Positions 14,421-47,580 of a DNA stretch of 64,000 nt are shown here, in pieces. The notes below the pieces were generated by a model. That model searched no databases. It had not been told where the DNA came from and saw only the letters and a program-made list of their open reading frames with translations. The translations under genes were made by a program, and so were the position numbers. How positions within the stretch are numbered: the stretch's first letter is position 1; each line of letters starts with the position of its first letter. Source of the DNA: Kineosporia succinea (lineage in GTDB: Bacteria > Actinomycetota > Actinomycetes > Actinomycetales > Kineosporiaceae); NCBI RefSeq assembly GCF_030811555.1, contig NZ_JAUSQZ010000001.1, forward strand, positions 2,353,241-2,417,240. The letters are read 5' to 3'.

Positions 14421-14454
14421 TGGTGCTTTCGATTATCGATAATCGAAAGCACCA
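14421..14454. repeat. Palindromic element, copy 1 (34-bp perfect palindrome)
   Basis: A perfect inverted repeat without loop is centred on ATCGAT. It shares the inner 28 bp, which includes TTCGATTATCGATAATCGAA, with copies at 30336 and 47541. The outermost three bases on each side differ from copy 2 yet remain complementary to each other. It lies between divergent SARP and hydrolase genes, beside the GGGGAC array. Confidence 0.93.
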
Positions 14455-14667
14455 CACTTTGCGCCGAGCCAAAGGTCCACCTGCGACCGCGCACAGAGCC
14501 CGGCCCCGACACAGCCGAACCGGACAGACCCGACTGAACCCCCGCACCGCCCACGCAGCCGACCTCACACTTCCCCCGCCGGCTCAAAGATCGATCCCCT
14601 GTTCGGTCCACCGCGTCCGCACCCGGCACTGATCGGTTGCTGATTCACGACCCACAGGCTGGTTCGC

Positions 14668-15525
14668 ATGAACATCCCCGGATTCACCCAGCAGCGCATC
14701 GAAGGCACCGACGGCGTGCACCTGAACGTCGCGGTCGGAGGTGAGGGGCCGGCCCTGGTGCTGCTCCACGGCTTTCCGCAGACTCACCTGTGCTGGCGCG
14801 ACGTCGCCGTCGAACTTGCCGTCGATCACACCGTCATCTGTCCTGACCTGCGCGGATACGGTGACAGCGACAAGCCCGCGGACACCGGTGAGACCTATTC
14901 CAAGCGCACGATGGCCAACGACGTGGTCGCCGTGACGAAACGGCTCGGCTTCGAGCGGTTCGCCCTCGCGGGGCACGACCGCGGCGCCCTGGTCGCGATC
15001 CGCGCCGGGCTCGACCACCCGGACACCGTCACGCACCTGGCCTCGCTCGACGTCTTCACCACGCTCGACACCTGGGACGTCATGGCCGGCCGGGCCGCCT
15101 CCGTGGGCTGGCACCTGTACCTCATGGCGCAGCCGCCCGGCCTGCCCGAGGCCATGATCAACGCCGTTCCCGAGGCCTTCTTCGGCCATTTCCTCGACAT
15201 CTGGGCCAAGACCCCGCTGGCCCTGCGCGATCTCTACGTCGAGAAGTCCCGCGCCGCCGTGACCTCGATCGTCGCCGACTACCGGGCCTCGGCGGGCATC
15301 GACGTCGACCACGACGAGGCCGACCGCGACGCCGGGCGCCGTCTGCGCATGCCCGTCACCGTGCTGCAGCAGGACTGGGGCCCGGCCATGACCGGGCACG
15401 CCGTGCAGCGCTGGCAGTCCTGGGCCCCCGACCTCGAGCACCGTACCGTCACCAGCGGGCACTTCATGGCCGAGGAGGACCCGGCCACGATCAGCCAGGC
15501 CCTGCGCGACCTGCTCAAGCGTTAG
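14668..15525 (+). CDS. Alpha/beta-hydrolase related to haloacetate dehalogenase / epoxide hydrolase
   Basis: The 285-residue alpha/beta hydrolase has H-G-F-P-Q near 34-38 (oxyanion loop), nucleophile D104 in G-H-D-R-G and a C-terminal His in S-G-H-F near 270. It aligns with fluoroacetate dehalogenases: R105, H149 and the Tyr of D-Y-R-A are kept. However, the second carboxylate-binding Arg is Leu108, and the Trp of the halide pocket is Leu150. It probably acts by an Asp-nucleophile mechanism on an ester, epoxide or halide that is not fluoroacetate. Its stop overlaps the convergent next gene by 4 bp. Confidence 0.85.
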   Translation: MNIPGFTQQRIEGTDGVHLNVAVGGEGPALVLLHGFPQTHLCWRDVAVELAVDHTVICPDLRGYGDSDKPADTGETYSKRTMANDVVAVTKRLGFERFALAGHDRGALVAIRAGLDHPDTVTHLASLDVFTTLDTWDVMAGRAASVGWHLYLMAQPPGLPEAMINAVPEAFFGHFLDIWAKTPLALRDLYVEKSRAAVTSIVADYRASAGIDVDHDEADRDAGRRLRMPVTVLQQDWGPAMTGHAVQRWQSWAPDLEHRTVTSGHFMAEEDPATISQALRDLLKR

Positions 15526-16040
15526 GGCAGTTCCGCCGAGCCGCCGAGATTCGCGATCATCCGCCGCAGCGTGTTGATCGTGGTCACGTAGTCCTCGGTG
15601 CTGATGCCCTCACAGGTATCAGCCTGTGCACCCGTCATCCGCTCCCGGGCGCGGGCCAGTCCCTGTTCCCCGTCCGGCGTCAGCCCCAGAACGCCGGAGG
15701 CATCGGTCAGCCAGCCGCGCTCGAGGAGGTCGTCGAACACGTCCTCCATCTCGATGCCCAGGTCGTCGTAGGGCTGCAGCCGGTCGGCCAGCACCGAACG
15801 GGTCCAGGTACCGGAGGACACATGGTTCAGCGTCCACCAGTGCGGCTGCGTGAGCTGCTCGAACACCAGCTCGGCCCGCAGCCGCCCGACCACCGCCTGG
15901 TGGGCGGCCCGGCTCCAGTACCCGATGGGCTGGGCCGCCACCTGCTCGTCCGTACCCGAGAGACCCGAGAGACCCGAAAGGCCCGAGAGCCCCGAAAGAC
16001 CTGCAAGACCCGGAAGCGCGTCAGAAGCCATACCGGCCAC
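15522..16040 (-). CDS. MarR-like winged-helix protein with N-terminal Leu-Ser-Gly repeats
   Basis: The C-terminal 120 residues look like a MarR/PadR-type winged helix (W-W-T-L-N-H-V then a helix-turn-helix and G-L-T-P-D-G-E-Q-G wing). The N-terminus carries five L-S-G units (about residues 14-29), encoded by an imperfect 9-bp repeat that may vary in copy number. Start choice is GTG 16040 or ATG 16031; neither has a clear ribosome site. The ligand and target are unknown. The gene is convergent with the hydrolase gene. Confidence 0.68.
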   Translation of the reverse strand: MAGMASDALPGLAGLSGLSGLSGLSGLSGTDEQVAAQPIGYWSRAAHQAVVGRLRAELVFEQLTQPHWWTLNHVSSGTWTRSVLADRLQPYDDLGIEMEDVFDDLLERGWLTDASGVLGLTPDGEQGLARARERMTGAQADTCEGISTEDYVTTINTLRRMIANLGGSAELP

Positions 16041-16065
16041 CGTACGAAGTGAACCGGACTTCAGG

Positions 16066-21242: not shown

Positions 21243-21296
21243 AATGATGGACGGGCCTGTCTCACCAGATCTGGTGAGACAGGCCCGTCCATCATT
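21243..21296. terminator. Terminator with 27-bp perfect stem
   Basis: A continuous 54-bp palindrome (27-bp arms, no unpaired loop beyond the turn) begins 6 bp after the glycosyltransferase stop and ends in ATTTT. Its unusual length makes it very stable. Confidence 0.88.
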
Positions 21297-29956: not shown

Positions 29957-30070
29957 ATGAAGAAGCTGCTGGTGGTCGCCGTCGCGTCCGCGGCCGGCGT
30001 CGCGCTCTGGCGCAAGGTCGGTTCCAACAAGCCCAGCCAGCCGTGGGCATCGGCGACCGACAAGGTCTGA
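29957..30070 (+). CDS. DLW-39 family small protein (37 residues)
   Basis: The peptide M-K-K-L-L-V-V-A-V-A-S-A-A-G-V-A-L-W-R-K-V followed by a polar tail matches the DLW-39 family, small proteins found next to the ribosomal-type tRNA-Ile/Ala pair near gyrA in actinobacteria. A GGGGAGGA ribosome site lies just before the ATG. tRNA-Ala starts 42 bp later on the same strand. Function is unknown. Confidence 0.85.
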   Translation: MKKLLVVAVASAAGVALWRKVGSNKPSQPWASATDKV

Positions 30071-30112
30071 TCCTCCCGTCCCGCGGGTGATAATGAATCA
30101 CTCGCGAGATCC

Positions 30113-30185: not shown

Positions 30186-30192
30186 CTTCATG

Positions 30193-30335: not shown

Positions 30336-30363
30336 TGCTTTCGATTATCGATAATCGAAAGCA
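30336..30363. repeat. Palindromic element, copy 2 (28-bp perfect palindrome)
   Basis: It has the same 28-bp core as copies 1 and 3, with no complementary extension beyond it. It lies 150 bp past the 3' end of tRNA-Ala and 11 bp before a tandem-repeat array. Confidence 0.93.
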
Positions 30364-30373
30364 TCGATCTGCT

Positions 30374-33304: not shown

Positions 33305-33433
33305 GTTGACTCCCTGAGGTTCACAGCGAGAGGGACTCAGCCGAGAACAGCTGAACCATGATCATCGCCCGGAATGCCGGTTTCCGCACGTCGATGAAGT
33401 GCCGTCCGGCCCGGGACGCGAGACGATCGCCGG

Positions 33434-34486
33434 GTGCTCCTCGACGTCCGCACCATCTACGCCGAACCCGCCGCGCTCGAGCTCGAGCGCGGGCGGCAGA
33501 TCGTCGAGCGCTGGCCTCGGGCCGAGGTGATCGAGGTGGCCTCGGCCAACCGCGTCGACGCGGTGCACGGTGACGAGCAGAACGTGCAGCGCTGGGTCCG
33601 GGTGAAGACCGAGGTGCTCGCGCTGGGGGTGCGCAAGACCATGACGGCCCGGGTGAACGGCCGTTCCGCGGACTGGATCGCCCCCAGCGCCGCGAACGGC
33701 TGCGCCATGGCCTGCGCCTACTGTTACGTCCCGCGGCACAAGGGCTACGCGAACCCGATCACGGTCTACGCCAACATCGAGCAGATGATCGGCTACCTGC
33801 GCCGGCACGTCGTGAGGCAGGGCCCCAAGACCGAGCCGAACCAGTGCGACCCGCGGGCCTGGGTCTACGACCTGGGGGAGAACAGCGACGCCAGCGTCGA
33901 CGCGCTGGTCAGCGACAACGTCGCCGACCTGGTCGCGGCCTTCCGCGACCTCGAGCACGCCAAGGCCTCGTTCGCGACCAAGTTCGTCAACCGCGACCTG
34001 CTCACCTACGACCCACAGGGCCGCACCCGCATCCGCTTCTCGGTGATGCCCGAGCGCACCGCGAAGCTGCTGGACATCCGCACCTCTTCGGTGGGGGAGC
34101 GCATCGCCGCGGTGGACGATTTCCTGGCCGCCGGCTACGAGGTGCACCTGAACATGTCACCGGTGGTGGTGCACGAGGAGTGGCTCAGCGACTGGGCCGA
34201 GCTGCTCCAGCAGCTGAACGATGTGCTCTCACCCGCCGCCAAGGCCCAGGCGCAGGCCGAGGTCATCTTCCTGACCCACAACCAGGGCCTGCACGACGTC
34301 AACCTGGGCTGGCATCCTCAGGCCGAGAACCTGTTGTGGCGCCCCGACATCCAGGAGTTCAAGGTCTCCCAGAACGGCATGCGCAACGTGCGTTACCGCG
34401 CGGGCTGGAAGGGCGTCTGGAAACAGCGCCTGCTCGACCTGATCGCCGAGCAGGCGCCCTGGCTGACCGTCCGGTACGCGTTCTAG
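33434..34486 (+). CDS. Radical-SAM protein of the spore photoproduct lyase family
   Basis: The 350-residue protein has the radical-SAM cluster C90-x3-C94-x2-C97 (C-A-M-A-C-A-Y-C) followed by Y-V-P-R-H-K-G-Y-A-N-P, a hallmark of SplB-type lyases. SplB repairs the spore-specific thymine dimer. Many non-sporulating actinobacteria carry this family, and its real substrate there is not known. GTG start. It is convergent with the subtilase gene (9-bp gap). Confidence 0.9.
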   Translation: MLLDVRTIYAEPAALELERGRQIVERWPRAEVIEVASANRVDAVHGDEQNVQRWVRVKTEVLALGVRKTMTARVNGRSADWIAPSAANGCAMACAYCYVPRHKGYANPITVYANIEQMIGYLRRHVVRQGPKTEPNQCDPRAWVYDLGENSDASVDALVSDNVADLVAAFRDLEHAKASFATKFVNRDLLTYDPQGRTRIRFSVMPERTAKLLDIRTSSVGERIAAVDDFLAAGYEVHLNMSPVVVHEEWLSDWAELLQQLNDVLSPAAKAQAQAEVIFLTHNQGLHDVNLGWHPQAENLLWRPDIQEFKVSQNGMRNVRYRAGWKGVWKQRLLDLIAEQAPWLTVRYAF

Positions 34487-34494
34487 GACGAGAC

Positions 34495-36219: not shown

Positions 36220-36348
36220 GTTAGAACCCCGTCCCTGGTTGACGTTCCGTCATCCTGAAATAACGGAGCGTCTAGTTGACGATTCAGGGGCCGAACGGGT
36301 TTGCCCTGTGCGTTTGAGCATCCCGGCCGGTCCTTGTAGGACGGAGGG

Positions 36349-37557
36349 ATGTCGGTCAGCGGTGAAGAGGCAATGGCTCTGGGTGAACTCGCGGAACGCT
36401 GGACGGAGGGGATCGACGCGGCGCTGCCGGCGGCCGTGGCCCTGCGCCACGAACTGCACGCCAATCCGGACGTTTCCGGGCAGGAGGAGCCCACGGCCCG
36501 CCGGGTGATGGCAGCGCTCGGCGGCCTGGACGCGGAGACCGTCGCCGGCACCGGCCGTCTGGTGCGGCTCGGCCCGCCCGGCCCGTCGATCGGGCTGAGG
36601 GCCGAGCTCGACGCCCTCCCGGTCGCCGAGCTGACCGGTTCACCGTTCGCCTCGACGGTGCGCACGCCTCCCGCGATGCACGCCTGTGGTCACGACGTGC
36701 ACCTGGCCGGTCTCTTCGCCGTCCTCCAGGCCGCCCGGCGACTGAAACTGCCGCTGGGACTCATCGGCCTGCTCCAGCCGCGTGAGGAGGTGGGCCCCAC
36801 CGGAGCCGCCGATGTCGTGGCCGGCGACCACCTCGTCCACCATCAGGTCAGGGCTCTGGTGGCCGCCCACGTGCAACCGCAGGTGCCCGCCGGACGCGTC
36901 GCCTCGGATGCCGGGCCGGTGAACGCCGCGGTCGACGAGATCGAGATCGTCGTCTCCGGCCGGGGTGGCCACGGCGCCTATCCGCACCTGGCCGTCGACC
37001 CCGTGCCCGCTCTCTGCCGGATCGTGCTGGCCCTGTCGGAGACGGCCCGATCGACCGTCAATCCCCTTCATGCCTCCGTGGTTTCGATCACCCAGATCAG
37101 CGGCTCGGCAGCCCCGAACGTCATCCCGGGAACCGCCGCAGCTGCCGGGACGATCCGCCTGATGCACGAGACCGACCGCCCCCTGCTGCACGAACGCCTG
37201 GCCCGGACGGTCACCAGCATCGCCGAGGCCCACGGCTGCACGGGCAAGTACGAGGTGCGACGCGGTGAGCCGGCCCTGGTCAACGACGCGACGCTGGCCG
37301 GCCTGACCCGCGGCTGGCTCGACGAGTTCCGGGTTCCGACCGCCTCTTTCGCCTCGTGCGGCTCCGACGACTTCGCCACCTACGGCTCCCAGGTGCCGAT
37401 CCTCATGCAGTTCGTCGGCACCGGCTACGACCATGCGAGCGGCCCGATGCTGCACGACCCGTCGTTCCTGCCCGGCGACGAGGTGGTGCGTCAGGTGGCC
37501 GTGGCCCTGCTGGCGGGCTGGCTGGGAGCGGCATCGGTCACGTCACCGAGTAGCTGA
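36349..37557 (+). CDS. M20-family metal-dependent amidohydrolase
   Basis: The 402-residue protein matches IAA-amino-acid-hydrolase/hippuricase-like M20D enzymes: M-H-A-C-G-H-D near 106-112 (metal ligands), catalytic Glu in Q-P-R-E-E-V-G near 144-150, and a G-R-G-G-H-G-A-Y-P-H dimerisation/lid motif near 204-213. It probably hydrolyses an N-acyl amino acid; the substrate is unknown. Its 3' end overlaps the convergent RibD-like gene by 20 bp. Confidence 0.91.
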   Translation: MSVSGEEAMALGELAERWTEGIDAALPAAVALRHELHANPDVSGQEEPTARRVMAALGGLDAETVAGTGRLVRLGPPGPSIGLRAELDALPVAELTGSPFASTVRTPPAMHACGHDVHLAGLFAVLQAARRLKLPLGLIGLLQPREEVGPTGAADVVAGDHLVHHQVRALVAAHVQPQVPAGRVASDAGPVNAAVDEIEIVVSGRGGHGAYPHLAVDPVPALCRIVLALSETARSTVNPLHASVVSITQISGSAAPNVIPGTAAAAGTIRLMHETDRPLLHERLARTVTSIAEAHGCTGKYEVRRGEPALVNDATLAGLTRGWLDEFRVPTASFASCGSDDFATYGSQVPILMQFVGTGYDHASGPMLHDPSFLPGDEVVRQVAVALLAGWLGAASVTSPSS

Positions 37558-38077
37558 GCAGCACCAGGCCGGTGGGCGTGCGGCGCCCGTCGTTCAGGGT
37601 GAGGCGGCGCAGCATGTCCTGGTTGTCGAACAGCTTGCGCCCGGTGCCGGCCAGCGTCGGCGCTACCACCAGGCGCAGTTCGTCGACCAGACCGGCGAAG
37701 AGCAGCGTCTGGGCCAGCCGGATGCTGCCGTGCACGCCGATGTCCCCGCCTTCTTGAGCCTTGAGCTGGGTGACGAAGCTGGTCAGGGGCTGCTCGATGC
37801 GCTCGGTGTTCGCCCAGGGATGGTTCAGCGGCGCACTCGTGGCCACGTACTTGGGGGTGCCGTTGATGAAGTCGGAGAACGGCTCCATGTCCATGTCCGG
37901 CCAGATCGGAGCCCACTCGTCGTACATCGCCCGCCCCAGCAACACCGTGTCCTGCCGCCGGATCACCTCCCGCAGGTTGTCCAGATACACCGTGTCTTCC
38001 TGCATGGGCATCCACCGGTCCGGACTCTCCGCCACCCCGTCGAGCGACAGCAGCTCGTACAGCACCACCCTGCGCAT
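37538..38077 (-). CDS. RibD C-terminal / dihydrofolate-reductase-like oxidoreductase
   Basis: The 179-residue protein has the DHFR-like fold of the YyaP/RibD-C family: S-L-D-G-V-A-E-S near 11-18, L-L-G-R-A-M-Y near 45-51, and G-V-H-G-S-I-R-L-A-Q-T-L near 113-124 (NADPH loop). The substrate is unknown; these are common stand-alone reductases in actinomycetes. ATG start. Confidence 0.9.
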   Translation of the reverse strand: MRRVVLYELLSLDGVAESPDRWMPMQEDTVYLDNLREVIRRQDTVLLGRAMYDEWAPIWPDMDMEPFSDFINGTPKYVATSAPLNHPWANTERIEQPLTSFVTQLKAQEGGDIGVHGSIRLAQTLLFAGLVDELRLVVAPTLAGTGRKLFDNQDMLRRLTLNDGRRTPTGLVLLSYSVT

Positions 38078-38147
38078 GACATCTCCCTGATCGACTCCAA
38101 CGAAGACGTCCCCCGCCCGCGGAACTCATCGGTCTACGGTGTGCGCC

Positions 38148-38510
38148 ATGACCCTGCTCGGCGCGGTCCCCTCCCTTCCCGTCTTCGACATCGCCGCGGC
38201 CGTGGAGTTCTACACCTCGAAACTGCCCTTCCGGTGCCGGTACCAGGAGGCCGGCCTGGCCATCCTGGTGAGCGACGCGGTCGAGCTCAGCCTGTGGGCC
38301 GCGAACCGCCCCGACATCCCCGGCGGCGAACCCCACCTGGCCGGCAGCGCGTCGTGCAGCTTCCGCGTCGACGACGCGACCGCTCTGCACCGGACCTGCG
38401 AGGGCATCGTGCATCCGAACGCCCCGCTGCACCGGACCGCATGGGGCACGCGCGAGTTCAGCGTGCTCGACCACGACGGCAACGCGATCCGGTTCTACGA
38501 GGTGCTCTGA
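38148..38510 (+). CDS. VOC-family (glyoxalase/bleomycin-resistance-like) protein
   Basis: This protein of about 120 residues has the paired beta-alpha-beta-beta-beta modules of VOC proteins: V-F-D-I-A-A-A-V-E-F-Y near the start and F-S-V-L-D-H-D-G-N-A-I-R-F-Y-E at the end. It may bind a drug or metal; function cannot be specified. The upstream GTG at 38139 is an alternative start. TACGGT just upstream could be a -10, giving a very short leader. Confidence 0.86.
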   Translation: MTLLGAVPSLPVFDIAAAVEFYTSKLPFRCRYQEAGLAILVSDAVELSLWAANRPDIPGGEPHLAGSASCSFRVDDATALHRTCEGIVHPNAPLHRTAWGTREFSVLDHDGNAIRFYEVL

Positions 38511-38558
38511 GCGCCCTCTCCGGATGCGACGCCCCGCGCACCGGAACACCATGCCCGT

Positions 38559-38840
38559 ATGGCTACTTCGACCAAGAAGCGCGATCCCGGCCCCAGCGTC
38601 AAGGACAAGGAGCTCTACGAGGAGCTCCGCGACCACGGCAACAGCAAGCAGAAGTCCGCCCGCATCGCCAACGCTGCTGCGGCCCGGGGCCGCAGCAGCG
38701 TGGGGCGCAAAGGTGGCAAGGCGGGCGACTACGACGACTGGTCGGTCGACGACCTGCGCAAGCGCGCCGCCGAGATCGGCGTCAGCGGGCGCTCGAGCAT
38801 GCGCAAGGCCGAACTGATCGACGCCCTGCGCAACAGCTAA
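38559..38840 (+). CDS. Small basic protein with Rho_N/SAP-like C-terminus
   Basis: The 93-residue protein has a conserved N-terminal block (D-P-G-P-S-V-K-D, N-S-K-Q-K-S-A-R-I-A-N-A-A-A) and a C-terminal helix-extended-loop-helix (D-L-R-K-R-A-A-E-I-G-V-S-G-R-S-S-M-R-K-A-E-L), like the Rho N-terminal/SAP nucleic-acid-binding fold. Such proteins are widespread in actinobacteria and poorly studied. Nucleic-acid binding is likely. It is convergent with the nitrilase gene. Confidence 0.85.
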   Translation: MATSTKKRDPGPSVKDKELYEELRDHGNSKQKSARIANAAAARGRSSVGRKGGKAGDYDDWSVDDLRKRAAEIGVSGRSSMRKAELIDALRNS

Positions 38841-38841
38841 C

Positions 38842-39675
38842 TCACCAGCAGGTCGGATCCGTGCTCCGAGGATCGTCGGACACCCGGCGCTCGGCGTAGA
38901 TGCTGCCCTCCCGGGCGCGTGCCCGCCACGGACGAGCCGCCATCTGCGCGATCTCCCATCGTGGGTCGCTCGCATCAATGTCGGCCACGAGAACTGCACT
39001 CCGGTCACCGGCTCGGGCCACCGGCGTTCCGTCCGGACCGAACACGCACGAGCCGAAACCAAGTCCCAGTCCGGCCGGGATCGACACCGCCACCCAGTAG
39101 CTGTTGATGGCCGCGTGTGCCTGGGCCAGGACCGGAAAGATCGATTCGCCAGGGTAGGCCGGTAGCAGCACCCCGTCGACGCCAAGCTGTTCGTACTCCG
39201 CGAACAGCTCCGGAAAGTTCACCTCGATGCAGGTGAGCAGACCGAAACGGAAACCGTCGACCGCGAACGTCACCGCCCGGAACCCAGGGGAGTAGAACCT
39301 GGTGATCTCTGTGTGCGAACAGAGCCGCTTGTCGTAGCGCTCCACGATCTCTCCCCGGTCGGAGATCACGTAAAGGCTGTTGTGCGGCCGGTTCGGCGCG
39401 GTGAGCCGGTGCGCACTGCCCAGCACCAGCCAGATGTCGAGGTCACGCGCCAGCCGTCTGATCAGATCGAGCTCCCGCTCCAGGGCCGCCCAGTCCATCA
39501 CCGACCAGTCCGGTACCTGCGCCTTCGCGTATCCCGACAGCATGCCCTCGGGCAAGAGCACCAGCCGGGCGCCCTCCCGCGCCGCCTGCCGAACAACTGA
39601 GCGCACCGTCCGGCCGTTCGCCGAGACGTCTCGGCTGACCCTGCTCTGTGCGACAGCGACACGAAGCCTGCTCAT
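38842..39675 (-). CDS. Carbon-nitrogen hydrolase (nitrilase superfamily)
   Basis: The 277-residue protein shows the Glu-Lys-Cys triad of the superfamily: Glu in L-L-P-E-G near 42, Lys in Y-D-K-R-L near 113, and Cys in L-T-C-I-E near 149. It probably cleaves an amide; substrate unknown. ATG start at M-S-R-L-R-V-A-V-A-Q, the usual beginning of the first beta strand. Confidence 0.92.
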   Translation of the reverse strand: MSRLRVAVAQSRVSRDVSANGRTVRSVVRQAAREGARLVLLPEGMLSGYAKAQVPDWSVMDWAALERELDLIRRLARDLDIWLVLGSAHRLTAPNRPHNSLYVISDRGEIVERYDKRLCSHTEITRFYSPGFRAVTFAVDGFRFGLLTCIEVNFPELFAEYEQLGVDGVLLPAYPGESIFPVLAQAHAAINSYWVAVSIPAGLGLGFGSCVFGPDGTPVARAGDRSAVLVADIDASDPRWEIAQMAARPWRARAREGSIYAERRVSDDPRSTDPTCW

Positions 39676-39758
39676 GGCGAACCCCCGTCTGTTCACCGTC
39701 CGATCATCAAGCCTGACAAGACGGCCCCCGGGCCGCAAGGTCCTGGAACCAGCCTGCT

Positions 39759-41303
39759 CTAACTCACCAGCAGGTCGAACTTCTCCGCCTCGGCGCGTGA
39801 CGTGGTGTCCGAGACCAGCTTGCTGCCGTTGTCCTGCACCCGTACGTACTCCTTGTCCACGTCCGCCTGCAGCGACACCGAACCGTCGTCGTTGCGGACC
39901 ACGGTGAACTTCTCCCACGGCCCGAGAGCCGTGCGGTTGGCGATCAGCGGCTCGGCGCCGGAGTTCTCCGCCGTGACCAACTGGGAGTTCGCCCGGGCGC
40001 GCAGAGCGACCAGACCGTCCGACGCGTCCTCGATGTCGAACTTCTCCCAGACGCCGGCGGAGGCGATGCTGGCGTTGAGCGGCGACGTGCCGTTCGGGTC
40101 GGCCTGCACCCACTTGCCCGTGGTGCGCGAGCGCAGCGAGATCGCGTCGCCCTCGGCGGGCAGCGGCGACGACGCACTCTGGTAGCTGATGCCGAGCAGG
40201 AAGTTCAGCGGGGTGGCGGTGAAATCGCTCTGCAGCGAACCGCCCTGGGCGACGTCCGACTGGAAACCGGCCGGCTTCGGGTTGACGCCGTCACAGCTGC
40301 CGTTGGGGATACCGATGTGCGTGGAGTTGTCCTTGTTTCCGGTGATGGTGAAGTCCTTCACACCATTCACCGCGTAGCCGTAGCCCATGGTCGAGCCCTC
40401 GAGCGTGTTGCCGGTGACGGTGCCGCCGGTGACCAGGGTGTCAGTGCACGACCAGACGCCCGGGCCCATCGCCAGGCCGATCTTGATCAGTGCACCGTCG
40501 GCCCGGATGGTGTTGTTCGAGACCACGGTCTCGGCGTAGTTCCCGTCCATCGGCCCGTAGTCGACCATGTTGATACCGCCCAGCAGCGTGCGGTTCTTGG
40601 CGATGATCGTGTTGTCGCTGACCGTCGAGCCAGGTGCCCCGAAGACGACGATGGCGCCGTCGGTCGCGTCGGTGATGGTGTTGTTCTTGACCGTCGTGGT
40701 GCCACAGGCCAGTGAGATGCCGTCGGCCCAGCCGTCGGGGGTGCCCGAAGGACCGATCTGGTTGCCGGTCACGCTCGCCCCCTGACAACCGGGCACACCA
40801 CTGCGCACGACCCCCTCGGCCAGGTGCAGGGCCGACCAGCCGCGCGGCTCCAGGAACCGGCTGTTCTCGACCACGAGACCGGTGACGTCGCCGCCGATCT
40901 CGACCAGCCCGCTGCCGCCCTCGATCCGGCCGAGCGTGGGCCGCTGCCCGTCGACCTGGATGCTGCGCAGCTTGATGCCGCTCTTGCCGCCGCCCTCGAT
41001 CGCGGTCGCCTGGTTCGCCCCTGTCACCCTGAGCGTGGCACGGGTGTCACCGGAGGGCAGGCCCTCGGTCTCGATCGACTGGTTCGCCGCCGAGAACCTC
41101 ACCGGTTGCGACAGGTCGAACGTGGCCCCCGCGCAGAGCGTCGCCACCGCCCCGTCGCCGCTCAGGGCGTTCTGAATGTCCTTGTCCGTACCGGATTCGA
41201 GGCAGCCGGCCGGGTTGGCCGCGGTGGCCACCGAGGTGCCGACCACCGCGAGCAGCCCGGCCGTACCGATCGCGGCTGCTACGAGCGAGCGTCGCTTGAT
41301 CAC
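39759..41303 (-). CDS. Secreted right-handed beta-helix protein with fascin-like C-terminal domain
   Basis: The 514-residue protein has a signal peptide (about 1-28, A-T-A-A). A parallel beta-helix (about 45-345) with repeated N-N-T-I / G-N-x-I rungs (V-K-N-N-T-I-T-D, V-S-D-N-T-I, V-S-N-N-T-I) follows. The C-terminal part (about 375-510) contains three repeats of the type L-R-S-R-T-T-G-K-W-V, E-K-F-D/T-V and V-A-L-R-A-R, like fascin or a beta-trefoil carbohydrate-binding module. It probably binds or cuts a polysaccharide outside the cell; no catalytic site could be assigned. Confidence 0.85.
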   Translation of the reverse strand: MIKRRSLVAAAIGTAGLLAVVGTSVATAANPAGCLESGTDKDIQNALSGDGAVATLCAGATFDLSQPVRFSAANQSIETEGLPSGDTRATLRVTGANQATAIEGGGKSGIKLRSIQVDGQRPTLGRIEGGSGLVEIGGDVTGLVVENSRFLEPRGWSALHLAEGVVRSGVPGCQGASVTGNQIGPSGTPDGWADGISLACGTTTVKNNTITDATDGAIVVFGAPGSTVSDNTIIAKNRTLLGGINMVDYGPMDGNYAETVVSNNTIRADGALIKIGLAMGPGVWSCTDTLVTGGTVTGNTLEGSTMGYGYAVNGVKDFTITGNKDNSTHIGIPNGSCDGVNPKPAGFQSDVAQGGSLQSDFTATPLNFLLGISYQSASSPLPAEGDAISLRSRTTGKWVQADPNGTSPLNASIASAGVWEKFDIEDASDGLVALRARANSQLVTAENSGAEPLIANRTALGPWEKFTVVRNDDGSVSLQADVDKEYVRVQDNGSKLVSDTTSRAEAEKFDLLVS

Positions 41304-41456
41304 TGGGAGATTTCCTTAGCTGAGACGTCTTCCTACGCCTCGCAAGCTAGGTACCCACACCCAAAGGGCCAGCAAAACCCTTGCTAAGAAAGCTTTTTCA
41401 TTGATCCCGAACGTACGGCACGGCCGGGTGGTTCAGTGATGCCGACCACAACCGAC

Positions 41457-41497
41457 GGGGGACGCGTCGGCACCGGTCGGGTGCCGACGCGTCCCCC
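41457..41497 (-). terminator. Terminator after the aldo/keto reductase gene
   Basis: An 18-bp perfect stem (41457-41474 with 41480-41497) around a 5-nt loop starts 9 bp beyond the stop codon. Confidence 0.85.
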
Positions 41498-41506
41498 ATC
41501 GGGGGT

Positions 41507-42508
41507 TCAGTTGCCCGCGCCCAGATTCTCCATGAAGAACGACGGGTACCGGTCGCCCCGGGCCGCCCCCAGGGGAACCGCCTTCTCGATCTCGGCCAGG
41601 TCGTCCGGCGTCAGTTCCAGATCGGCCGCGATCCGGGCCTCGTCGAGCCGGGTGCGGGTGCGCGCACCGATCAGCGGCACGATCTCCGGACCCTGCGCCG
41701 CCACCCAGGCGATGGCGAGCTGGGCCACGGTGCAGCCCTTGACCTCGGCGATCGCGCGCAGCGCCTCGACCAGGGCCAGGTTGTGCTCCACGTTGTCGGC
41801 CGCGAACCGGGGGCTGCCGGCGCGGTGGTCGCCCGGTGCGGGCCGGGTGGACCGGTCGGTCGTCCAGTGCCCGGAGATCAGGCCCCGGCTGAGCACGCCG
41901 TAGGCGGTCAGCCCGATGCCGAGTTCGCGCAGCGTGGGCAGCACCTCGGCCTCGATCGCCCGGGAGATCAGCGAGTACTCGATCTGCAGGTCGGTGATCG
42001 GGTGCACGGCGTGGGCCCGGCGGATCGTCTCGGCGTTCATCTCCGAGAGCCCGGCGTAGCGCACGTACCCGGCCTCGACGAGCTCCTTGATCGCGCCGAC
42101 CGTTTCCTCGATCGGCACGTCCGGGTCACGACGGGCGGGGCGGTAGATGTCGATGTGATCGGTGCCCAGGCGGGTCAGCGAGTGCGCCACGCTGTTCCTG
42201 ATCGCCTCGGGCCGGCCGTCGTGGCCACCGGGCAGACCGTTCGGGTTCAGCAGCATGCCGGTCTTCACGCTCAGCACGTAGCTGTCGCGTGGCCGGCCCT
42301 TCAGCGCTTCGGCCAGCAGCAGCTCGTTGTGGCCCGCCGCGTAGAAGTCGGCCGTGTCGATGAGCGTGATCCCGGCGTCGAGCGCTGCCTGCACGGTGGC
42401 GATGCTCTCGTCCCGGTCGGCGGTGCCGTAGGCGCCGGACATGCTCATCCCGCCCAGGCCGATCGCCGAGACGGTGGGGCCGTTCTGGCCGAGGGTACGG
42501 GTCTGCAT
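41507..42508 (-). CDS. Aldo/keto reductase
   Basis: The 333-residue TIM-barrel NADPH oxidoreductase has Asp and Tyr in D-T-A-D-F-Y near 52-57 and Lys in V-K-T-G near 83. At the usual catalytic His site the protein reads I-Y-R-P-A-R, so His is replaced, as in a known subgroup of AKRs with Y-R-P-A-R. The coenzyme-binding I-P-L-I-G-A-R-T-R-T-R near 287 is clear. AAGGGAG precedes the ATG. It diverges from an XRE gene that probably regulates it. Confidence 0.92.
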   Translation of the reverse strand: MQTRTLGQNGPTVSAIGLGGMSMSGAYGTADRDESIATVQAALDAGITLIDTADFYAAGHNELLLAEALKGRPRDSYVLSVKTGMLLNPNGLPGGHDGRPEAIRNSVAHSLTRLGTDHIDIYRPARRDPDVPIEETVGAIKELVEAGYVRYAGLSEMNAETIRRAHAVHPITDLQIEYSLISRAIEAEVLPTLRELGIGLTAYGVLSRGLISGHWTTDRSTRPAPGDHRAGSPRFAADNVEHNLALVEALRAIAEVKGCTVAQLAIAWVAAQGPEIVPLIGARTRTRLDEARIAADLELTPDDLAEIEKAVPLGAARGDRYPSFFMENLGAGN

Positions 42509-42625
42509 GGCGTGCTCCCTTTCGTTCGTCGTGCCTCCAGGCTGGGCTTTTGACGAGCTGAGCGGGAGAGGAGCGTTCATCGTGGGAGCGCCGCTCCCTG
42601 GCTGGGCCGGTTCGGGAGGCGCAGG

Positions 42626-43480
42626 ATGGACGACATGCAGCGTGACGAGCTCGCCGACTTCCTGCGCCGCCGACGCGAGGCGATCCGCCCGGCCGAGGTG
42701 GGCATCGCCGACGGCCCGCGCCGCCGCACCAACGGGCTGCGCCGGGAGGAGGTGGCCATGCTCGCCGGGATGTCGGTCGACTACGTGGTGCGCCTCGAGC
42801 AGGGGCGCAGCAGTCAGCCGTCGACGCAGCTGCTCGCCTCGCTGGCCCGGGCCCTGCGCCTGACCGACGACGAACGCGACCACCTCTTTCACCTGGCCGG
42901 GCACCAGCCGCCGGCCTCGGAGGGGCACTCCCAGCTGGCCCGGGCCGGTCTGGTGCGAATGCTCGACCTGCTGGAGGGGGCCTCCGCGATGGTCATCTCC
43001 GACCTCGGCGTGGTGCTGGCCCAGAACCGCCTGTCCGTGCTGGTGGCCGGGGAGCTGACCCGGGCGGGCGGTGACCGCCGCTACCTCATTCACCGCTTCT
43101 TCACCGAGGCCAACGACTGGGGTGAACAGCTGCCGGAAGAACGTGAGCACCAGGCCCGGCAGCTGGTGGCCGACCTGCGGGCGGTCTACGGGCGGCGATC
43201 CGACGATCCGGAGGTGATCGGTCTGGTGGCGCGGCTCCAGGAGGACAGCGCCGAGTTCCGGGGTCTGTGGGCCGATCACGAGGTGAAGGTGCGGCGTGCC
43301 GACCGGAAGACGCTGGTGCACGCACGGGTCGGCCGGCTGCTGATGGACTGCGAGACCCTGGTCACGCCCGACCTGCGTCAGCAGTTGCTCGTGCTCACCC
43401 CGGCCGATGCGCAGACCCGCGAGAAGCTCGATCTGCTGCGGGTTCTCGGCACCCAGGAGTTCACGCCCGGCGTACGCTGA
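42626..43480 (+). CDS. XRE-family regulator with MmyB-type ligand domain
   Basis: The 284-residue protein has an N-terminal helix-turn-helix (about 10-75; R-R-T-N-G-L-R-R-E-E-V-A-M-L-A-G-M-S, then Y-V-V-R-L-E-Q-G-R). A C-terminal PAS-like MmyB domain (about 105-270) binds fatty acids in homologues. Divergence from the aldo/keto reductase gene is a common regulator-target layout. It overlaps the convergent MFS gene by 20 bp. Confidence 0.92.
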   Translation: MDDMQRDELADFLRRRREAIRPAEVGIADGPRRRTNGLRREEVAMLAGMSVDYVVRLEQGRSSQPSTQLLASLARALRLTDDERDHLFHLAGHQPPASEGHSQLARAGLVRMLDLLEGASAMVISDLGVVLAQNRLSVLVAGELTRAGGDRRYLIHRFFTEANDWGEQLPEEREHQARQLVADLRAVYGRRSDDPEVIGLVARLQEDSAEFRGLWADHEVKVRRADRKTLVHARVGRLLMDCETLVTPDLRQQLLVLTPADAQTREKLDLLRVLGTQEFTPGVR

Positions 43481-44687
43481 CGTGTCGGTCGCGGCTGGCC
43501 AGCAGACCGGCCACCAGCTGCACCACGAGCAGGACGCCGAGGGCTGCGATCGGCAGGGCCCACTCACCGGAAACCGAGTGCAGGTAGCCGATTCCGAGCG
43601 GTCCGAGGCCGGCGAAGAGGTAGCCGATGCCCTGCGCCATGGTGGAGACGTGCCCGGTGTGAGCGGCGTCGGGCGAGCGCCAGACGATGTAGGTGAGGGC
43701 CAGGCTGATCGAGGCGCCCTGGCCGAGGCCGAGCAGACTCATCCACAGGTAGGCGCCGGCGGTGGGGGCGAGAGCCAGGCCGGCGTAGCCCGCGCCGGTC
43801 AGGACGACGGCGATGACGATCGGGAGTCCGGCCGGGCGCATCGTGCGGGCCAGGGTGGGGGTGAACAGCGACGCGGCGATGCCCGGGAAGGCCGAGAACG
43901 ACAGCAGCCAGCCGGCCGTGTGGGCGTCCATGCCGTTATCGGTGAGCAGGGTGGGGATCCAGGTCAGCGTGGCGTAGTAGCTCATGCTCTGGGTGCCCAT
44001 CAGCACGGTCACGGCCAGGGCGACGGGGTCGGTCAGGATGGCTGAGAAGCGGGGTGCGTTCGTGCTTTTGGACGCGTCGGGGCTCGCCTCGGGTCGGTGG
44101 TTGCGGAACTGCGGGGTCCACAGCAGCACGGCCAGCACCGCGGGGATCGCCCAGAGTCCCAGGGCCACGCGCCATTCGCCGCCGACGACGGGAAGCAGGG
44201 GCGAGGTCAGGCCGGAGGCCAGGGCCGCGCCGATGAACAGCGTGGTGGAGTAGAGGCCCATCATCAGCCCGGCGCGGTGCGAGAAGTCGCGTTTGATGGC
44301 GGCGGGCATGGCGACGTTGGCGATCGCGATGGCCGCGCCCACCACCACGGTGCCGGCGAAGAGCGCGGCCAGGTCCGGGTAGAGCCGGAGCAGCAGCCCG
44401 GCCACGAGCGCGACCATGGCCGCGCCGAGCAGCCGGTGCAGGCCGAACCGCCTGGTCAGGCCGGGGGTGAGAAAGGCGAAGGCACCGAACGCCACGACCG
44501 GGATGGTGGTCAGCAGGCTCGCGGCGGTGTCGGTGATGCCCAGGTCGTTCCGGATGTCGCCGAGCACCGGCCCGATCGAGGCGACGCCGATGCGGAGGTT
44601 GAGCCCGATCAGCAGCAACCCGAGCGCCAGGAGAGCGGACTTCGTCCGTCGCTGGTCGGTTTTCGGTCGTTCCGGCGCGGTGGCCAT
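43461..44687 (-). CDS. CynX/NimT-family MFS transporter
   Basis: The 408-residue protein has 12 predicted membrane helices. G-L-N-L-R-I-G-V-A-S-I-G-P near 28-40 is the signature of CynX-type (cyanate/2-nitroimidazole) transporters. Substrate is not predictable. It diverges from an AraC gene, the usual local regulator for this family. Confidence 0.92.
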   Translation of the reverse strand: MATAPERPKTDQRRTKSALLALGLLLIGLNLRIGVASIGPVLGDIRNDLGITDTAASLLTTIPVVAFGAFAFLTPGLTRRFGLHRLLGAAMVALVAGLLLRLYPDLAALFAGTVVVGAAIAIANVAMPAAIKRDFSHRAGLMMGLYSTTLFIGAALASGLTSPLLPVVGGEWRVALGLWAIPAVLAVLLWTPQFRNHRPEASPDASKSTNAPRFSAILTDPVALAVTVLMGTQSMSYYATLTWIPTLLTDNGMDAHTAGWLLSFSAFPGIAASLFTPTLARTMRPAGLPIVIAVVLTGAGYAGLALAPTAGAYLWMSLLGLGQGASISLALTYIVWRSPDAAHTGHVSTMAQGIGYLFAGLGPLGIGYLHSVSGEWALPIAALGVLLVVQLVAGLLASRDRHVSVRRA

Positions 44688-44764
44688 CAGATTCGTCCTT
44701 GCTGTTGCGGGGATGCCCCCAGTTCACCGCCCGTCATTGCCGCAGGCAACCGATAAACTGACGC

Positions 44765-45535
44765 GTGATGCCCGAAACCCGCCATCATTGTGCTCAGCCG
44801 GAGCAGACGCTTCTGCTCGGCCACGCCGAGCGCACCGCCGAGCACGCCCATACGCGAGGTCATCTCGTGTACCCGGCCACGGGCGTCCTCTCGCTGGTGA
44901 CCGCCACCGGCAGCTGGATCGCCCCACCCAACCGGGTCGTCTGGATCCCGGGCGGGGCCGGACATCAGCACCGGGCCCACGGCGTCACCGACATGCGGGT
45001 GGTCTTCCTGTCGTCGGAGCTGGCCGAGCCCCTGCCCACACGCCCCGCCGTGCTCGTGGTCACGCCTCTGGCCCGGGCGGCTCTTCTGGCCCTGACCAGC
45101 AGCGATCAGCGCAGCCCGGCGGCGGTGGACCGACTGCGCCACGTTGTGGTCGACGACCTGTCGGTGGCCCCGGAGCAGCCGCTGCACCTGCCCGAACCCC
45201 GCGACGACCGGCTCCGCGCGGTGGCCCGGCGGGTGGCCGACGACCTGACCGGATCGGCCACCCTGGCGGAGCTGGGCCGTGAGGTGGGAGCGGCCGAACG
45301 CACTCTGAGCCGGCTCTTCCATGCCGAGACCGGTATGGGTTTCCGGCAGTGGCGCACCCAGCTGCGCGTTCACCGGGCGCTGTTGCTGCTCTCCGACGGG
45401 ATGCCGGTGATCGACGTGGCGGCGGCCTGCGGCTGGGCGAACCCGAGTGCGTTCATCGAGGCGTTCACGCTGTTGGTCGGGCAGAGTCCGGGGCGGTATC
45501 AGCGCTCGTCGCGTCTTTCGCCTTCGGACGGCTGA
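44765..45535 (+). CDS. AraC-family transcriptional regulator
   Basis: The 256-residue protein has a cupin-type sensor half (about 20-110; H-A-H-T-R-G, W-I-P-G-G-A-G-H) and a double helix-turn-helix (about 160-250; L-A-E-L-G-R-E-V-G-A-A-E-R-T-L-S-R-L-F and A-A-A-C-G-W-A-N-P-S-A-F-I-E-A-F). Position suggests control of the divergent CynX-type gene. GTG 44765 or ATG 44768 is the start. Its end overlaps the convergent MFS gene by 71 bp. Confidence 0.93.
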   Translation: MMPETRHHCAQPEQTLLLGHAERTAEHAHTRGHLVYPATGVLSLVTATGSWIAPPNRVVWIPGGAGHQHRAHGVTDMRVVFLSSELAEPLPTRPAVLVVTPLARAALLALTSSDQRSPAAVDRLRHVVVDDLSVAPEQPLHLPEPRDDRLRAVARRVADDLTGSATLAELGREVGAAERTLSRLFHAETGMGFRQWRTQLRVHRALLLLSDGMPVIDVAAACGWANPSAFIEAFTLLVGQSPGRYQRSSRLSPSDG

Positions 45536-46658
45536 GCGAGGCCAGCACCGCCCCGATCGCCAGCACCACGGCGAGAGCCGCGTAGCCGAACGTGAGGGTG
45601 GTCGCCGCGGCGACGGCGGCCACGAAGAGGGGACCACCCGCGTCCCCCATTTCGCGCCCCAGTTCGGCGGAGCCCATGGTCTGCCCCATGCGCTCCTCGG
45701 AGGTGGAGGCGGCGAGGGCCGAAAAGCCCAGCGGCGTGATGATTCCGGTGCCGATGCCGATGAGCACACCGGCGAGGAGCACGCCGGTCAGGCCCGGCAG
45801 CGTCGCGGCGGCCATACCGATGGCGGTGGCGAAAAGGCCTGTCAGAAGGCCGGTTCTGATGGTGAGACGCCCCTGGTCGAGAGCCCGGCCGGTTCTCGGC
45901 TGCACGAAGGCGGCCGCGGCGGCGAGCACGGAGACGGCCGCACCGGTGGCGATCGTGCCGAGGCCGGCCGCGGCGCCGGAGACGGGCAGGAAGCCAACGC
46001 CGACGGAGAGGGCGGCGGTGGCTGCGGCGAGTGCGGCGGTCGGGCCCAGGAATGAGCGGTCGGAGAGACGACGAGCCAGGTCAGCGACGGTTTGGCGCTG
46101 GCGGGGCAGGGGTGGGACCTCGGGGACGGCGGCCCAGGCCCAGACCGCGACGACGGCGCCGCAGAGCATCATCACGGTGAACAGCAGGCGCAGGCCGCCG
46201 GCCCAGACGAGCACACCGCCGAGCAGGGGGCCGAGGGTGTAGCCGATGGACTTGTAGAAGCCGTAGCTGCCGAACGCCCGGCCGCGCCTGGCCGCCGGGT
46301 TGAGCCGTGCGACCAGGGCCGAGGCGGAGGGGGAGAAGGCCGAGGCGGCGGCGCCCTGGCCGAGGCGCGCGGCCCAGAGCCAGCCCGAGCTGTCGGCCAC
46401 GACGTACAGGGCGGAGGCGGCGGCGAACGCGACGAGGCCGCCCAGCAGAACGGGTTTGGCTCCGATCCGGTCGGAGAGGGTGCCGAAGACCGGTTTGAGG
46501 ATGACCTCGGCCCCGTCGTACAGCGCGAGCAGGGCCCCGAGCACGAGCAGTGAGCTGACGGCGTCGTCGGAGAAGCCACCGAGGTTGGCGGCGATGCCGT
46601 GGGCGCCGAAGGCGGTGGTGAATCCCGCGGCGTACAGAGGCCACATCGACCGGCTCAC
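45465..46658 (-). CDS. MFS efflux transporter
   Basis: The 397-residue protein has 12 hydrophobic helices. G-T-L-S-D-R-I-G-A-K-P-V-L-L-G-G near 58-73 is the MFS loop 2-3 motif A, and R-L-G-Q-G-A-A near 95 is also typical of drug:H+ antiporters. The GTG start overlaps the stop of the upstream ChrB-like gene (GTGA), so the two are coupled. A role in export of a toxic compound sensed or handled by that protein is possible. Confidence 0.9.
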   Translation of the reverse strand: MSRSMWPLYAAGFTTAFGAHGIAANLGGFSDDAVSSLLVLGALLALYDGAEVILKPVFGTLSDRIGAKPVLLGGLVAFAAASALYVVADSSGWLWAARLGQGAAASAFSPSASALVARLNPAARRGRAFGSYGFYKSIGYTLGPLLGGVLVWAGGLRLLFTVMMLCGAVVAVWAWAAVPEVPPLPRQRQTVADLARRLSDRSFLGPTAALAAATAALSVGVGFLPVSGAAAGLGTIATGAAVSVLAAAAAFVQPRTGRALDQGRLTIRTGLLTGLFATAIGMAAATLPGLTGVLLAGVLIGIGTGIITPLGFSALAASTSEERMGQTMGSAELGREMGDAGGPLFVAAVAAATTLTFGYAALAVVLAIGAVLASLSRPKAKDATSADTAPDSARPTA

Positions 46659-47200
46659 AGAGCATCTCCGTCGTTGCTGTGCAGGGCCTTGAACACGCGT
46701 TCGGCGTAGCGCTCGCAGTCGGTGGCACACTGCTTGAGCCGTTCCGCGGCTTCGGGTGCCTCGGGGGCGCCGAACACGTCGCGGGCGGTGATGTCGCGGT
46801 GCCAGCGGCGGAGCCGTTCCAGGCTCTGTTCCTCTTCTTCCAGCTCGGCCAGGGTGAACTTGGCGATGCGGATCTCCTTGGCGATCTCCGCCTCGAACTT
46901 GTGGCAGTCGGCGAGGAACTCGAACCACTCGGCGGAGCGGGCCTCGGTGAAAAGCTTCTCCAGGTGCTCGGTGTCGCCCGCGGTGCGCCCGCTGGCCTGC
47001 AGCGTGACGGCCTGCCCGCCGGCGGCCTCGGCCAGCTCCACGGCCTGGCCGACGCCCCTCATGAACGCAGGGACGTCGGGTGCGGCCCAGACTCCCTGCC
47101 CCAGCGAGAGCACGCCGGCCTTGCGGAGCTCACGCCACACCGCCACGCGGTGACGTGACGGCTCGGCGGGGACCTTGATCAGGAGTATCAACCACGTCAC
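46655..47200 (-). CDS. ChrB N-terminal-domain-like protein
   Basis: The 181-residue protein matches the N-terminal domain of the chromate-resistance regulator ChrB (W-L-I-L-L-I-K-V-P-A-E-P-S-R-H-R-V-A-V-W-R-E-L-R-K-x-G). A charged coiled-coil region follows. The ChrB C-terminal domain is missing, which is common in actinomycete homologues paired with an MFS gene. A link to chromate is not shown. GTG start. Confidence 0.82.
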   Translation of the reverse strand: MTWLILLIKVPAEPSRHRVAVWRELRKAGVLSLGQGVWAAPDVPAFMRGVGQAVELAEAAGGQAVTLQASGRTAGDTEHLEKLFTEARSAEWFEFLADCHKFEAEIAKEIRIAKFTLAELEEEEQSLERLRRWHRDITARDVFGAPEAPEAAERLKQCATDCERYAERVFKALHSNDGDAL

Positions 47201-47335
47201 TTAATCGAATGTAGCAGGCGTTACTTCATCGATCGTGACACTCACGACGCAGGCTGGTCTGCGGTGGCGTGGAGGTGACATCCGCGGATCCTCACCGGTT
47301 GCCGCGCTCTCCGCCCCGGTGCTCCCCGCCTCGGG
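47201..47335. other. Start of a 730-bp gene-free region
   Basis: From 47201 to the tRNA-Ile gene no convincing gene is present. This first part must contain the ChrB-like promoter. The rest is repeat arrays, the palindrome and hairpins listed separately. Confidence 0.4.
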
Positions 47336-47485
47336 CACTCTCCGCCTTGGCACTCTCCGCCTTGGCACTCTCCGCCTTGGCACTCTCCGCCTTGGCACTC
47401 CCCACCCCGGCACTCCCCACCCCGGCACTCCCCACCCCGGCACTCCCCACCCCGGCACTCCCCACCCCGGCACTCCCCGCCCCGA
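47336..47485. repeat. 15-bp tandem repeat array, 10 copies of two types
   Basis: Four units of CACTCTCCGCCTTGG are followed by five units of CACTCCCCACCCCGG and one variant. The abrupt switch between two homogenised unit types suggests separate expansion events. The 3n period keeps frames open on both strands, but the predicted peptides are pure repeats and I do not call genes. Confidence 0.93.
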
Positions 47486-47540
47486 TGCTCCCCGGCCTCG
47501 GTACTTCCCGCCCCGGCGCCCGGCCTCCGGTCGATCGCAA

Positions 47541-47580
47541 GTGCGGTGCTTTCGATTATCGATAATCGAAAGCACCGCAC
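47541..47580. repeat. Palindromic element, copy 3 (40-bp perfect palindrome)
   Basis: It has the same 28-bp core as copies 1 and 2, extended by a further 6 bp of self-complementary sequence on each side (GTGCGG / CCGCAC). It lies between two repeat arrays and 350 bp beyond the 3' end of tRNA-Ile. Confidence 0.94.

What the first reader, a model, noticed from the sequence alone, without database searches (positions are those of the whole stretch)
14421..47580. Three copies of an identical 28-bp palindromic core with different but self-complementary arms, about 16-17 kb apart
Perfect palindromes sit at 14421-14454 (34 bp), 30336-30363 (28 bp) and 47541-47580 (40 bp). All share the same 28-bp core containing TTCGATTATCGATAATCGAA. 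Outside the core the sequences differ, yet each left arm still matches its own right arm. That is expected for a dimeric protein site, cruciform or RNA hairpin under selection. The core is AT-rich in a GC-rich genome. None of the copies is in a gene, and the contexts differ (divergent, downstream of tRNA, upstream of tRNA terminator), so this is not one ordinary operator or terminator. Spacing is 15.9 and 17.2 kb. A chromosome-organisation or recombination site, or a mobile palindromic repeat with an unknown partner protein, are the main options.
Basis: partly seen in the sequence, partly recalled or inferred. Interest (0 to 1): 0.85.

Follow-up and report, generated by a model that had tools for sequence, protein, structure and literature searches.

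The report
Dispersed perfect palindromes kept symmetric
A bacterium carries about 45 copies of one perfect DNA palindrome between its genes, and related species carry different palindromes of the same design, which hardly change while the DNA around them does; this looks like a variant of known small palindromic repeats whose protein partner is unknown.

Summary
The window's genome (8.07 Mb) has 33 exact copies of the 20-bp core, 40 at up to one mismatch and 45 by covariance model; all 40 checked are intergenic. The ~44-bp unit has a nearly invariant 28-bp centre and arms that vary between copies but stay self-complementary (119 double-changed cells, 58.6 in shuffles). The core is absent from the five same-genus genomes held. 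Two sister species (G002, G005) carry a different 54-bp perfect palindrome in 28 and 32 places; diverged versions occur in two more. Over 19 orthologous G002/G005 pairs the palindrome differs at 2.4% of bases, the adjacent ~100 bp at 36%: it is constrained. One locus is occupied in G002 and empty in G005; another keeps only a remnant in G005. I found no Y1 (RAYT) transposase in G000, G002 or G005, no common gene function, terminator tail, parS motif or ori/ter bias. Best reading: lineage-specific, REP-like dispersed palindromes acting as DNA hairpin or cruciform, kept by selection, mobiliser or binder unknown. A fast-evolving chromosome-wide protein site is the main rival.

The parts
14421..14454 (.). 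copy 1: 34-bp perfect palindrome (28-bp core 14424-14451), divergent intergenic region
   Evidence: context
30336..30363 (.). copy 2: 28-bp perfect palindrome (core only), starting 150 bp past the end of tRNA-Ala
47541..47580 (.). copy 3: 40-bp perfect palindrome (core 47547-47574), between a ChrB_N-domain gene and tRNA-Ile
62608..63093 (-). Bac_DnaA domain of dnaA: the window lies beside dnaA, the usual oriC neighbourhood (context, not part of the element)
   Evidence: G000:C1:2415848-2416333, window = G000:C1:2353241-2417240

Best explanation
A family of small non-autonomous dispersed palindromic elements, REP-like in behaviour. Shown: copies carry a ~44-bp (G000) or ~54-bp (G002/G005) palindrome, perfect to the centre in nearly all copies, that folds on itself as a single strand; arms change in matched pairs; copies lie between ordinary genes; different species have different cores; one locus is occupied in one species and empty in a sister; old copies stay almost unchanged while flanks diverge. 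Inferred: a core variant spread in bursts (one in the G000 lineage, one in the G002/G005 ancestor) inside a weakly conserved surround of roughly 100 bp; the working form is a DNA hairpin or cruciform (dyad perfect to the centre, divergent intergenic regions also occupied in G000, asymmetric surround not tied to gene direction), recognised by an unidentified protein that moved it and/or now uses it. Retained copies are under purifying selection, by use or through continued recognition.
For: 45 places in G000, 0 in five same-genus genomes at <=1 mismatch (the model gives G004 two weak rows at one place, E 0.1 and 0.26). Different family in G002/G005 with the same architecture; diverged versions in G001 and G004, still symmetric. 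Covariation: 14 of 24 pairs changed on both sides; 12 of 27 pairs. 21 of 28 G002 places have an orthologous G005 copy; 25/1026 changes inside against 1329/3694 in flanks over 19 of these 21 pairs. Empty site and remnant. 40 of 40 G000 copies and 40 of 40 exact G002/G005 copies examined (of 43 exact) are intergenic by my gene caller. Convergent enrichment in G000 (16/37 vs 21/155, p=1.4e-4) and divergent scarcity in G002/G005 (3/39 vs 46/131, p=5e-4; orthologous copies are counted in both species); REPs too are predominantly between unidirectional and convergent ORFs (PMC3733652: abstract, passages, section 15). Asymmetric outer flanks above a far-flank control.
Against: No transposase or recombinase domain among 70 mostly flanking proteins scanned, and no Y1 transposase in G000, G002 or G005. 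Only two loci were compared in detail, and no target-site duplication is established. A neutral mobile element should not be some 15 times more conserved than its flanks, so mobility alone does not explain the retention. G000 copies show an excess of 15.9-22.1 kb spacings (9 of 45) that this reading does not predict. Mismatches on the sense strand of tandem sites lean towards G-U (14:5), as an RNA role would predict.
Confidence: 0.55

Rival explanations
1. Chromosome-wide binding sites of a fast-evolving DNA-binding protein (nucleoid organisation, gyrase or other supercoil-related binding, segregation). The protein binds the duplex palindrome; its specificity changed between lineages and sites were replaced.
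For: Very strong sequence constraint at orthologous sites; dyad perfect to the centre in nearly all copies; regularly spaced 4-bp boxes: TCGA every 7 bp in G000, GTAC every 9 bp in G002/G005 (read by eye); copies spread round the whole chromosome; excess of 15.9-22.1 kb gaps in G000; enrichment between convergent genes.
Against: Arm positions that vary between copies still match inside each copy, which dimer binding alone does not need; no ori/ter bias; canonical parS-like sites are elsewhere, in all six genomes searched; the gap excess was found post hoc and is not evident on the G005 contigs (2 gaps of 15-22 kb, counted by eye).
Confidence: 0.25
2. RNA hairpins in 3' untranslated regions (terminators, stability or processing elements).
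For: Covariation; -39.7 kcal/mol as RNA for L028; divergent regions scarce in G002/G005; mismatches in tandem sites on the sense strand are G-U rather than A-C 14 to 5 (7:1 and 7:4; weak, orthologues counted twice).
Against: 10 of 37 G000 copies with both neighbours called are in divergent regions; centres lie at least 83 bp (G000) or 63 bp (G002/G005) from the nearest called gene; no T-run in the consensus; a terminator scan of window 30000-48200 (copies 2 and 3 only) finds terminators at shuffle level and just one, a 5-pair stem overlapping the foot of copy 3; orientation of the asymmetric flank is unrelated to gene direction (7:11 and 7:4); no Rfam family at its gathering score in 17 loci scanned.
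Confidence: 0.15
3. Neutral palindromes kept symmetric by replication template switching between the arms, with copies homogenised by gene conversion.
For: Would explain paired changes and symmetry to the centre without selection on structure.
Against: Template switching fixes changes in both arms but should not lower the rate; only 3 paired double changes among 513 pair positions against 36% flank divergence. Homogenisation within a species should give species-specific differences; G002 and G005 share the same core.
Confidence: 0.05

Closest known systems
REP elements / REPINs with RAYT (TnpA_REP) transposases; GTAG and CGTC super-families
   Same: Short, palindromic, intergenic, dispersed, some families species-specific, mostly between convergent and unidirectional ORFs (PMC3733652: abstract, passages and section 15)
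   Different: Perfect loop-less palindrome of 44-54 bp instead of a 20-40 bp stem-loop; no GTAG/CGTC tag at the foot of the consensus; about 30-45 copies where REPs usually exceed 100 (PMC2817692, abstract start in a listing); no Y1 transposase in G000, G002 or G005; centres at least 63 bp from called genes, whereas most conv-REPs in the two species of that paper's Figure 6 lie <20 bp from the 3' ends
Untagged REP-like repeats and MITEs
   Same: Non-coding, dispersed, no gene of their own; presence/absence difference of about 110 bp or more at one locus
   Different: No terminal inverted repeats or target duplication established; the centre, not the ends, is conserved
parS and other chromosome-organisation palindromes (SlmA, Noc, MatP sites; recalled)
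   Same: Palindromes in several to tens of copies per chromosome
   Different: Different motif, about three times as long as parS, no ori/ter bias, species-specific core, variable but matched arms

Membership tests
RAYT-associated REP | Y1 (HUH tyrosine) transposase in the genome, flanked by repeats | tested here: not met
   PF01797: 0 matches in G000, G001, G002, G003, G005; 1 in G004, with no match to the palindrome model and no long inverted repeat in its 3.3-kb locus
RAYT-associated REP | GTAG or CGTC tag at the foot of the stem | tested here: not met
   Judged from consensus columns, not by a motif search: feet are GAA/TTC-like (G000) and GCG/CGC (G002/G005); a CGTC inside TACCCGTCG lies some 45 bp from the centre in a minority of G000 copies
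RAYT-associated REP | Intergenic, species-specific, convergent/tandem preference | tested here: met
   in G000 divergent regions are not rare (10 of 37)
MITE / IS derivative | Terminal inverted repeats and target-site duplication | tested here: inconclusive
   One clean occupied/empty pair (L070 vs L171); a possible 4-bp duplication seen by eye, once only
Intrinsic terminator | Stem followed by a T-run, close to a stop codon | tested here: not met
   Columns; distances (copies 2 and 3 only)
parS (ParB site) | GTTTCACGTGAAAC-like site clustered at oriC | tested here: not met
   At <=1 mismatch 14 such sites in G000, 11 of them at 2.424-2.439 Mb, and 8 to 12 in each of 5 relatives; 0 in the window at <=2 mismatches
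Known structured RNA (Rfam 15) | Match at gathering score | tested here: not met
   Only two tRNAs in the window; none in 17 copy-bearing loci (sub-threshold hits at the palindromes are miRNA-precursor hairpin models)
Chromosome-organisation protein site | Specific protein bound in vivo | not testable with these tools
   needs pull-down or ChIP

The most novel reading that the evidence does not exclude
A genus-specific class of loop-less palindromes acts as chromosome-wide cruciform or oligomer-binding sites, built from regularly spaced 4-bp boxes (TCGA/7 bp, GTAC/9 bp), and co-evolves rapidly with an unidentified DNA-binding protein, so that each lineage rewrites its 30-45 sites.
Probability: 0.22. 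Interest if true: 0.85.

Novelty: new variant of a known kind. Interest (0 to 1): 0.62.

Why it matters
Intergenic DNA that changes at 2.4% of bases, in tens of unlinked places, while the neighbouring blocks that align between the two species mostly differ by 5-10%, must do something or be remade by something. The same architecture is seen with different sequences in sister species, with paired changes between orthologous copies and with occupied and empty sites, so how REP-like palindromes without a RAYT spread and why they are kept become testable questions. If a protein partner exists, the palindrome is a ready-made bait.

Tried and rejected
parS: rejected. RAYT-REP: rejected as a membership claim. 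Positional system around oriC/ter: no first- or second-harmonic bias over 40 copies. Element carrying its own gene: the closest pair (7717798 and 7723788, L032) has ordinary genes between the copies. Same intergenic region reused by both families: none seen when 41 G000 loci were compared with 40 loci of exact G002/G005 copies (the first 15 G000 loci reach only 1.5 kb either side); L036/L077/L107 and L032/L096 are one gene apart, L009/L089 share a neighbouring block in a rearranged region. Avoidance or excess of TCGA/GTAC outside the elements: nothing notable. Plasmids: no match; phages: one weak, partial match to each palindrome at E 0.4 and 0.6; viral contigs: 0 exact for the G000 core (the second core was not scanned there); GTDB r220 contigs: one exact 20-mer in Bradyrhizobium with other outer arms, against about 0.2 expected (my estimate). 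Other multicopy perfect palindromes: none seen in 358 kb of G000, 457 kb each of G001 and G003, 109 kb of G002 and 129 kb of G005; that is sampling, and only two further cores were counted genome-wide. Literature: (PMC only) listed no paper on these palindromes; of PMC3733652 I saw outline, abstract, passages and section 15; of PMC1590033 outline and abstract; the rest only in listings.

Errors corrected: one search used a wrong register for the structure and is superseded; one search crashed and was rerun; my notebook says 34 exact + 6 one-mismatch, the count is 33 + 7.

Rows dropped before counts: one search used 19 of 21 orthologous pairs (L165/L152 and L167/L100 left out: one arm broken, or 9 bp shorter). 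Alignment A2 left out 20 G005 orthologues, L081, L152, L167, L169 and 3 of 5 G004 places. A1 holds the 40 copies at <=1 mismatch, so the 5 others of the 45 are not. Context counts rest on a simple codon-usage gene caller of my own: 3 of 40 G000 and 1 of 40 G002/G005 copies had no called gene on one side, and the G000 background includes the sites' own intergenic regions. Orthologous copies were counted in both species in the G-U test and in the divergent-scarcity test.

Full report
What was checked. The three palindromes are present exactly as described, far beyond chance (0 in 100 shuffles). The window is G000:C1:2353241-2417240 of an 8,065,021-base single contig; dnaA is at window ~62608-63093, so this is the dnaA/oriC neighbourhood.

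Copy number in the own genome. The 20-bp core TTCGATTATCGATAATCGAA occurs 33 times exactly and 40 times at up to one mismatch; up to three mismatches gives 44 places, two of which overlap. A covariance model built from the 40 copies finds 45 places, the weakest at E about 0.003. Two are new and have changed cores that still pair: at 4,830,762 the core is TTCGGTCATCGATGACCGAA, with two paired double changes and 19 paired positions from the centre; at 6,800,227 most of the stem still pairs. L040 and L041 carry an enlarged centre with a fourth TCGA box.

Anatomy. Over 40 copies, positions 1-11 and 14 from the centre are invariant or nearly so, 12-13 nearly, 16 is mostly a G/C pair, and 15, 17-20 and 22 vary between copies. 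In-copy pairing exceeds what column composition gives: position 15 pairs in 36 of 40 (15.1 expected), 17 in 30 (18.8), 18 in 28 (18.4), 19 in 22 (10.6), 20 in 22 (10.3), 22 in 25 (16.3). Beyond about position 25 it is near expectation; 83.0% of cells paired (shuffles 75.7), 14 of 24 pairs changed on both sides, 119 double-changed cells (58.6), no shuffle of 500 reaching any measure; slid controls give 28-45 double-changed cells. As single strands the window copies fold into full hairpins (-15.6, -10.9, -21.4 kcal/mol as DNA).

Context. All 40 copies are intergenic by a simple gene caller: 16 convergent, 11 tandem, 10 divergent, 3 unclear, in intergenic regions mostly 400-1300 bp long. Convergent regions are over-represented (16/37 against 21/155, p=1.4e-4). 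Pfam on 70 mostly flanking proteins shows ordinary chromosomal genes of mixed function and no transposase or recombinase. 2 of 41 loci have a tRNA. The 40 copies show no first- or second-harmonic bias around dnaA (p about 0.84 and 0.48). They do cluster locally: of the 45 gaps (45 places, contig taken as circular) 13 are under 25 kb (5.7 expected, p=0.002) and 9 lie at 15.9-22.1 kb (scan p=0.0004; found post hoc).

Relatives. At up to one mismatch the core is in 1 of 118 genomes searched, the own one, so in 0 of 5 others of the genus; the model adds only one weak place in G004 (E 0.1). While reading relatives I met a different perfect palindrome in G002 and G005. Its core TACATCCGGTACCGGATGTA has 28 places in G002 and 32 in G005 at up to two mismatches (20 and 23 exact), 3 in G004, none in G000, G001, G003. 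The unit is 54 bp, GCGTTGTGTACACCTGGTACATCCGG and mirror. Its outer positions 24-27 vary; pairing exceeds column expectation at 24 in both species (18/20 against 13.2 and 11.9) and at 25-27 in G002, but hardly in G005. All 40 exact copies examined, of 43, are intergenic, with divergent regions scarce (3/39 against 46/131, p=5e-4). A model of this family (38 sequences; 12 of 27 pairs changed on both sides, 38 double-changed cells against 18.3) gives, over 13 genomes and counting both strands, 74 matches in G002, 83 in G005, 30 in G004, 27 in G001, 3 weak in G003, 0 in G000, and 5 weak ones in three other genera. The G001 and G004 copies I looked at (3 each) have other centres, symmetric or nearly so in five of the six: for example TGTGTGCACATGGTTCACCTGGT (L222) and TGTGTACACCTGGCACATCCGGT (L214), each followed by its mirror; L239 of G004 is broken in the centre. 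One G003 palindrome (L229) looks like the same half-unit turned inside out; its score is weak, no further copy turned up in 457 kb of G003, and I treat it as a lead only.

Conservation. 21 of 28 G002 places have an orthologous G005 copy among the 32 G005 places. Over 19 of those pairs the 54 bp differ at 25 of 1026 positions (2.4%), the flanking ~100 bp at 1329 of 3694 (36%; poorly alignable intergenic DNA inflates this). Three differences are paired double changes (for example GCGTTG..CAACGC against GCGATG..CATCGC, L078/L095); 16 turn a pair into a mismatch or the reverse; 3 fall at pairs unpaired in both. I infer purifying selection; a mutation bias that keeps arms alike would not by itself give so low a rate.

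Gain and loss. At the L070 locus G002 has the palindrome within a stretch about 109 bp longer than in G005 (by eye an insertion of some 130 bp); G005 has a short continuous sequence there, and G000 and G001 alignments also show short gaps, which favours insertion in G002. At the L079 locus G005 keeps AGGTCTGCGTTGT, the family's outer arm, without the rest, which points to a loss. Outer flanks hold a weak asymmetric consensus to about 50 bp from the centre, above a far-flank control (19.4 against 9.2 bits for 36 G002/G005 copies, 15.0 against 9.4 for 40 G000 copies); its direction is unrelated to gene direction in tandem sites (7:11 and 7:4).

How it most likely works. Shown: dispersed elements whose palindrome is constrained in sequence and in symmetry, with lineage-specific families and with gain and loss. 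Inferred: the symmetric unit works as a DNA hairpin or cruciform, or as an oligomer site, for a protein not identified here; spread was in bursts; retention is by use. It works like a REP element but fails two defining tests of RAYT-associated REPs (transposase, tag) and differs in structure, so I do not file it there. PMC3733652 itself notes REP-like families without tags, and CGTC REPs without a dedicated transposase (passages), so the nearest shelf is untagged REP-like repeats.

Limits. G-U against A-C in tandem sites (14:5) mildly favours an RNA role and is not settled.

Noticed in passing
window 21243-21296: Single-copy 54-bp perfect palindrome starting 7 bp after an ORF end at 21236; probably a terminator; no other copy of its 20-bp centre in six genomes at <=2 mismatches.
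   Followed up: partly
   Followed up: no
G000 whole contig: Nine of 45 gaps between neighbouring palindromes are 15.9-22.1 kb; unexplained and found post hoc.
   Followed up: partly
window 13795-14667: Intergenic region of copy 1 is over 800 bp with GGACGG and other tandem repeats; the unaligned gap in the five relatives is about 47 to 180 bp. Many copies have tandem repeats next to them.
   Followed up: partly
L067 and L063 (G005) against window 25.7-31.1 kb: Order and orientation of blocks near tRNA-Ala differ in G005, with a palindrome at one block edge; possibly a rearrangement at or near the palindrome.
   Followed up: no
L017, L018, L019, L033: Four of the 70 proteins scanned beside G000 copies belong to DNA repair or recombination families (RecQ-like helicase, UvrD-like helicase, Y-family polymerase, RmuC); no enrichment test was made.
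   Followed up: no
window 59908-59937: Two tandem TCGAACACCTGTTCG units resembling the actinobacterial SOS box (motif recalled).
   Followed up: no
L167 (G002), L040 and L041 (G000): Copies with one box fewer or more (9-bp and 7-bp steps), as if the regularly spaced 4-bp boxes were gained or lost as units.
   Followed up: partly
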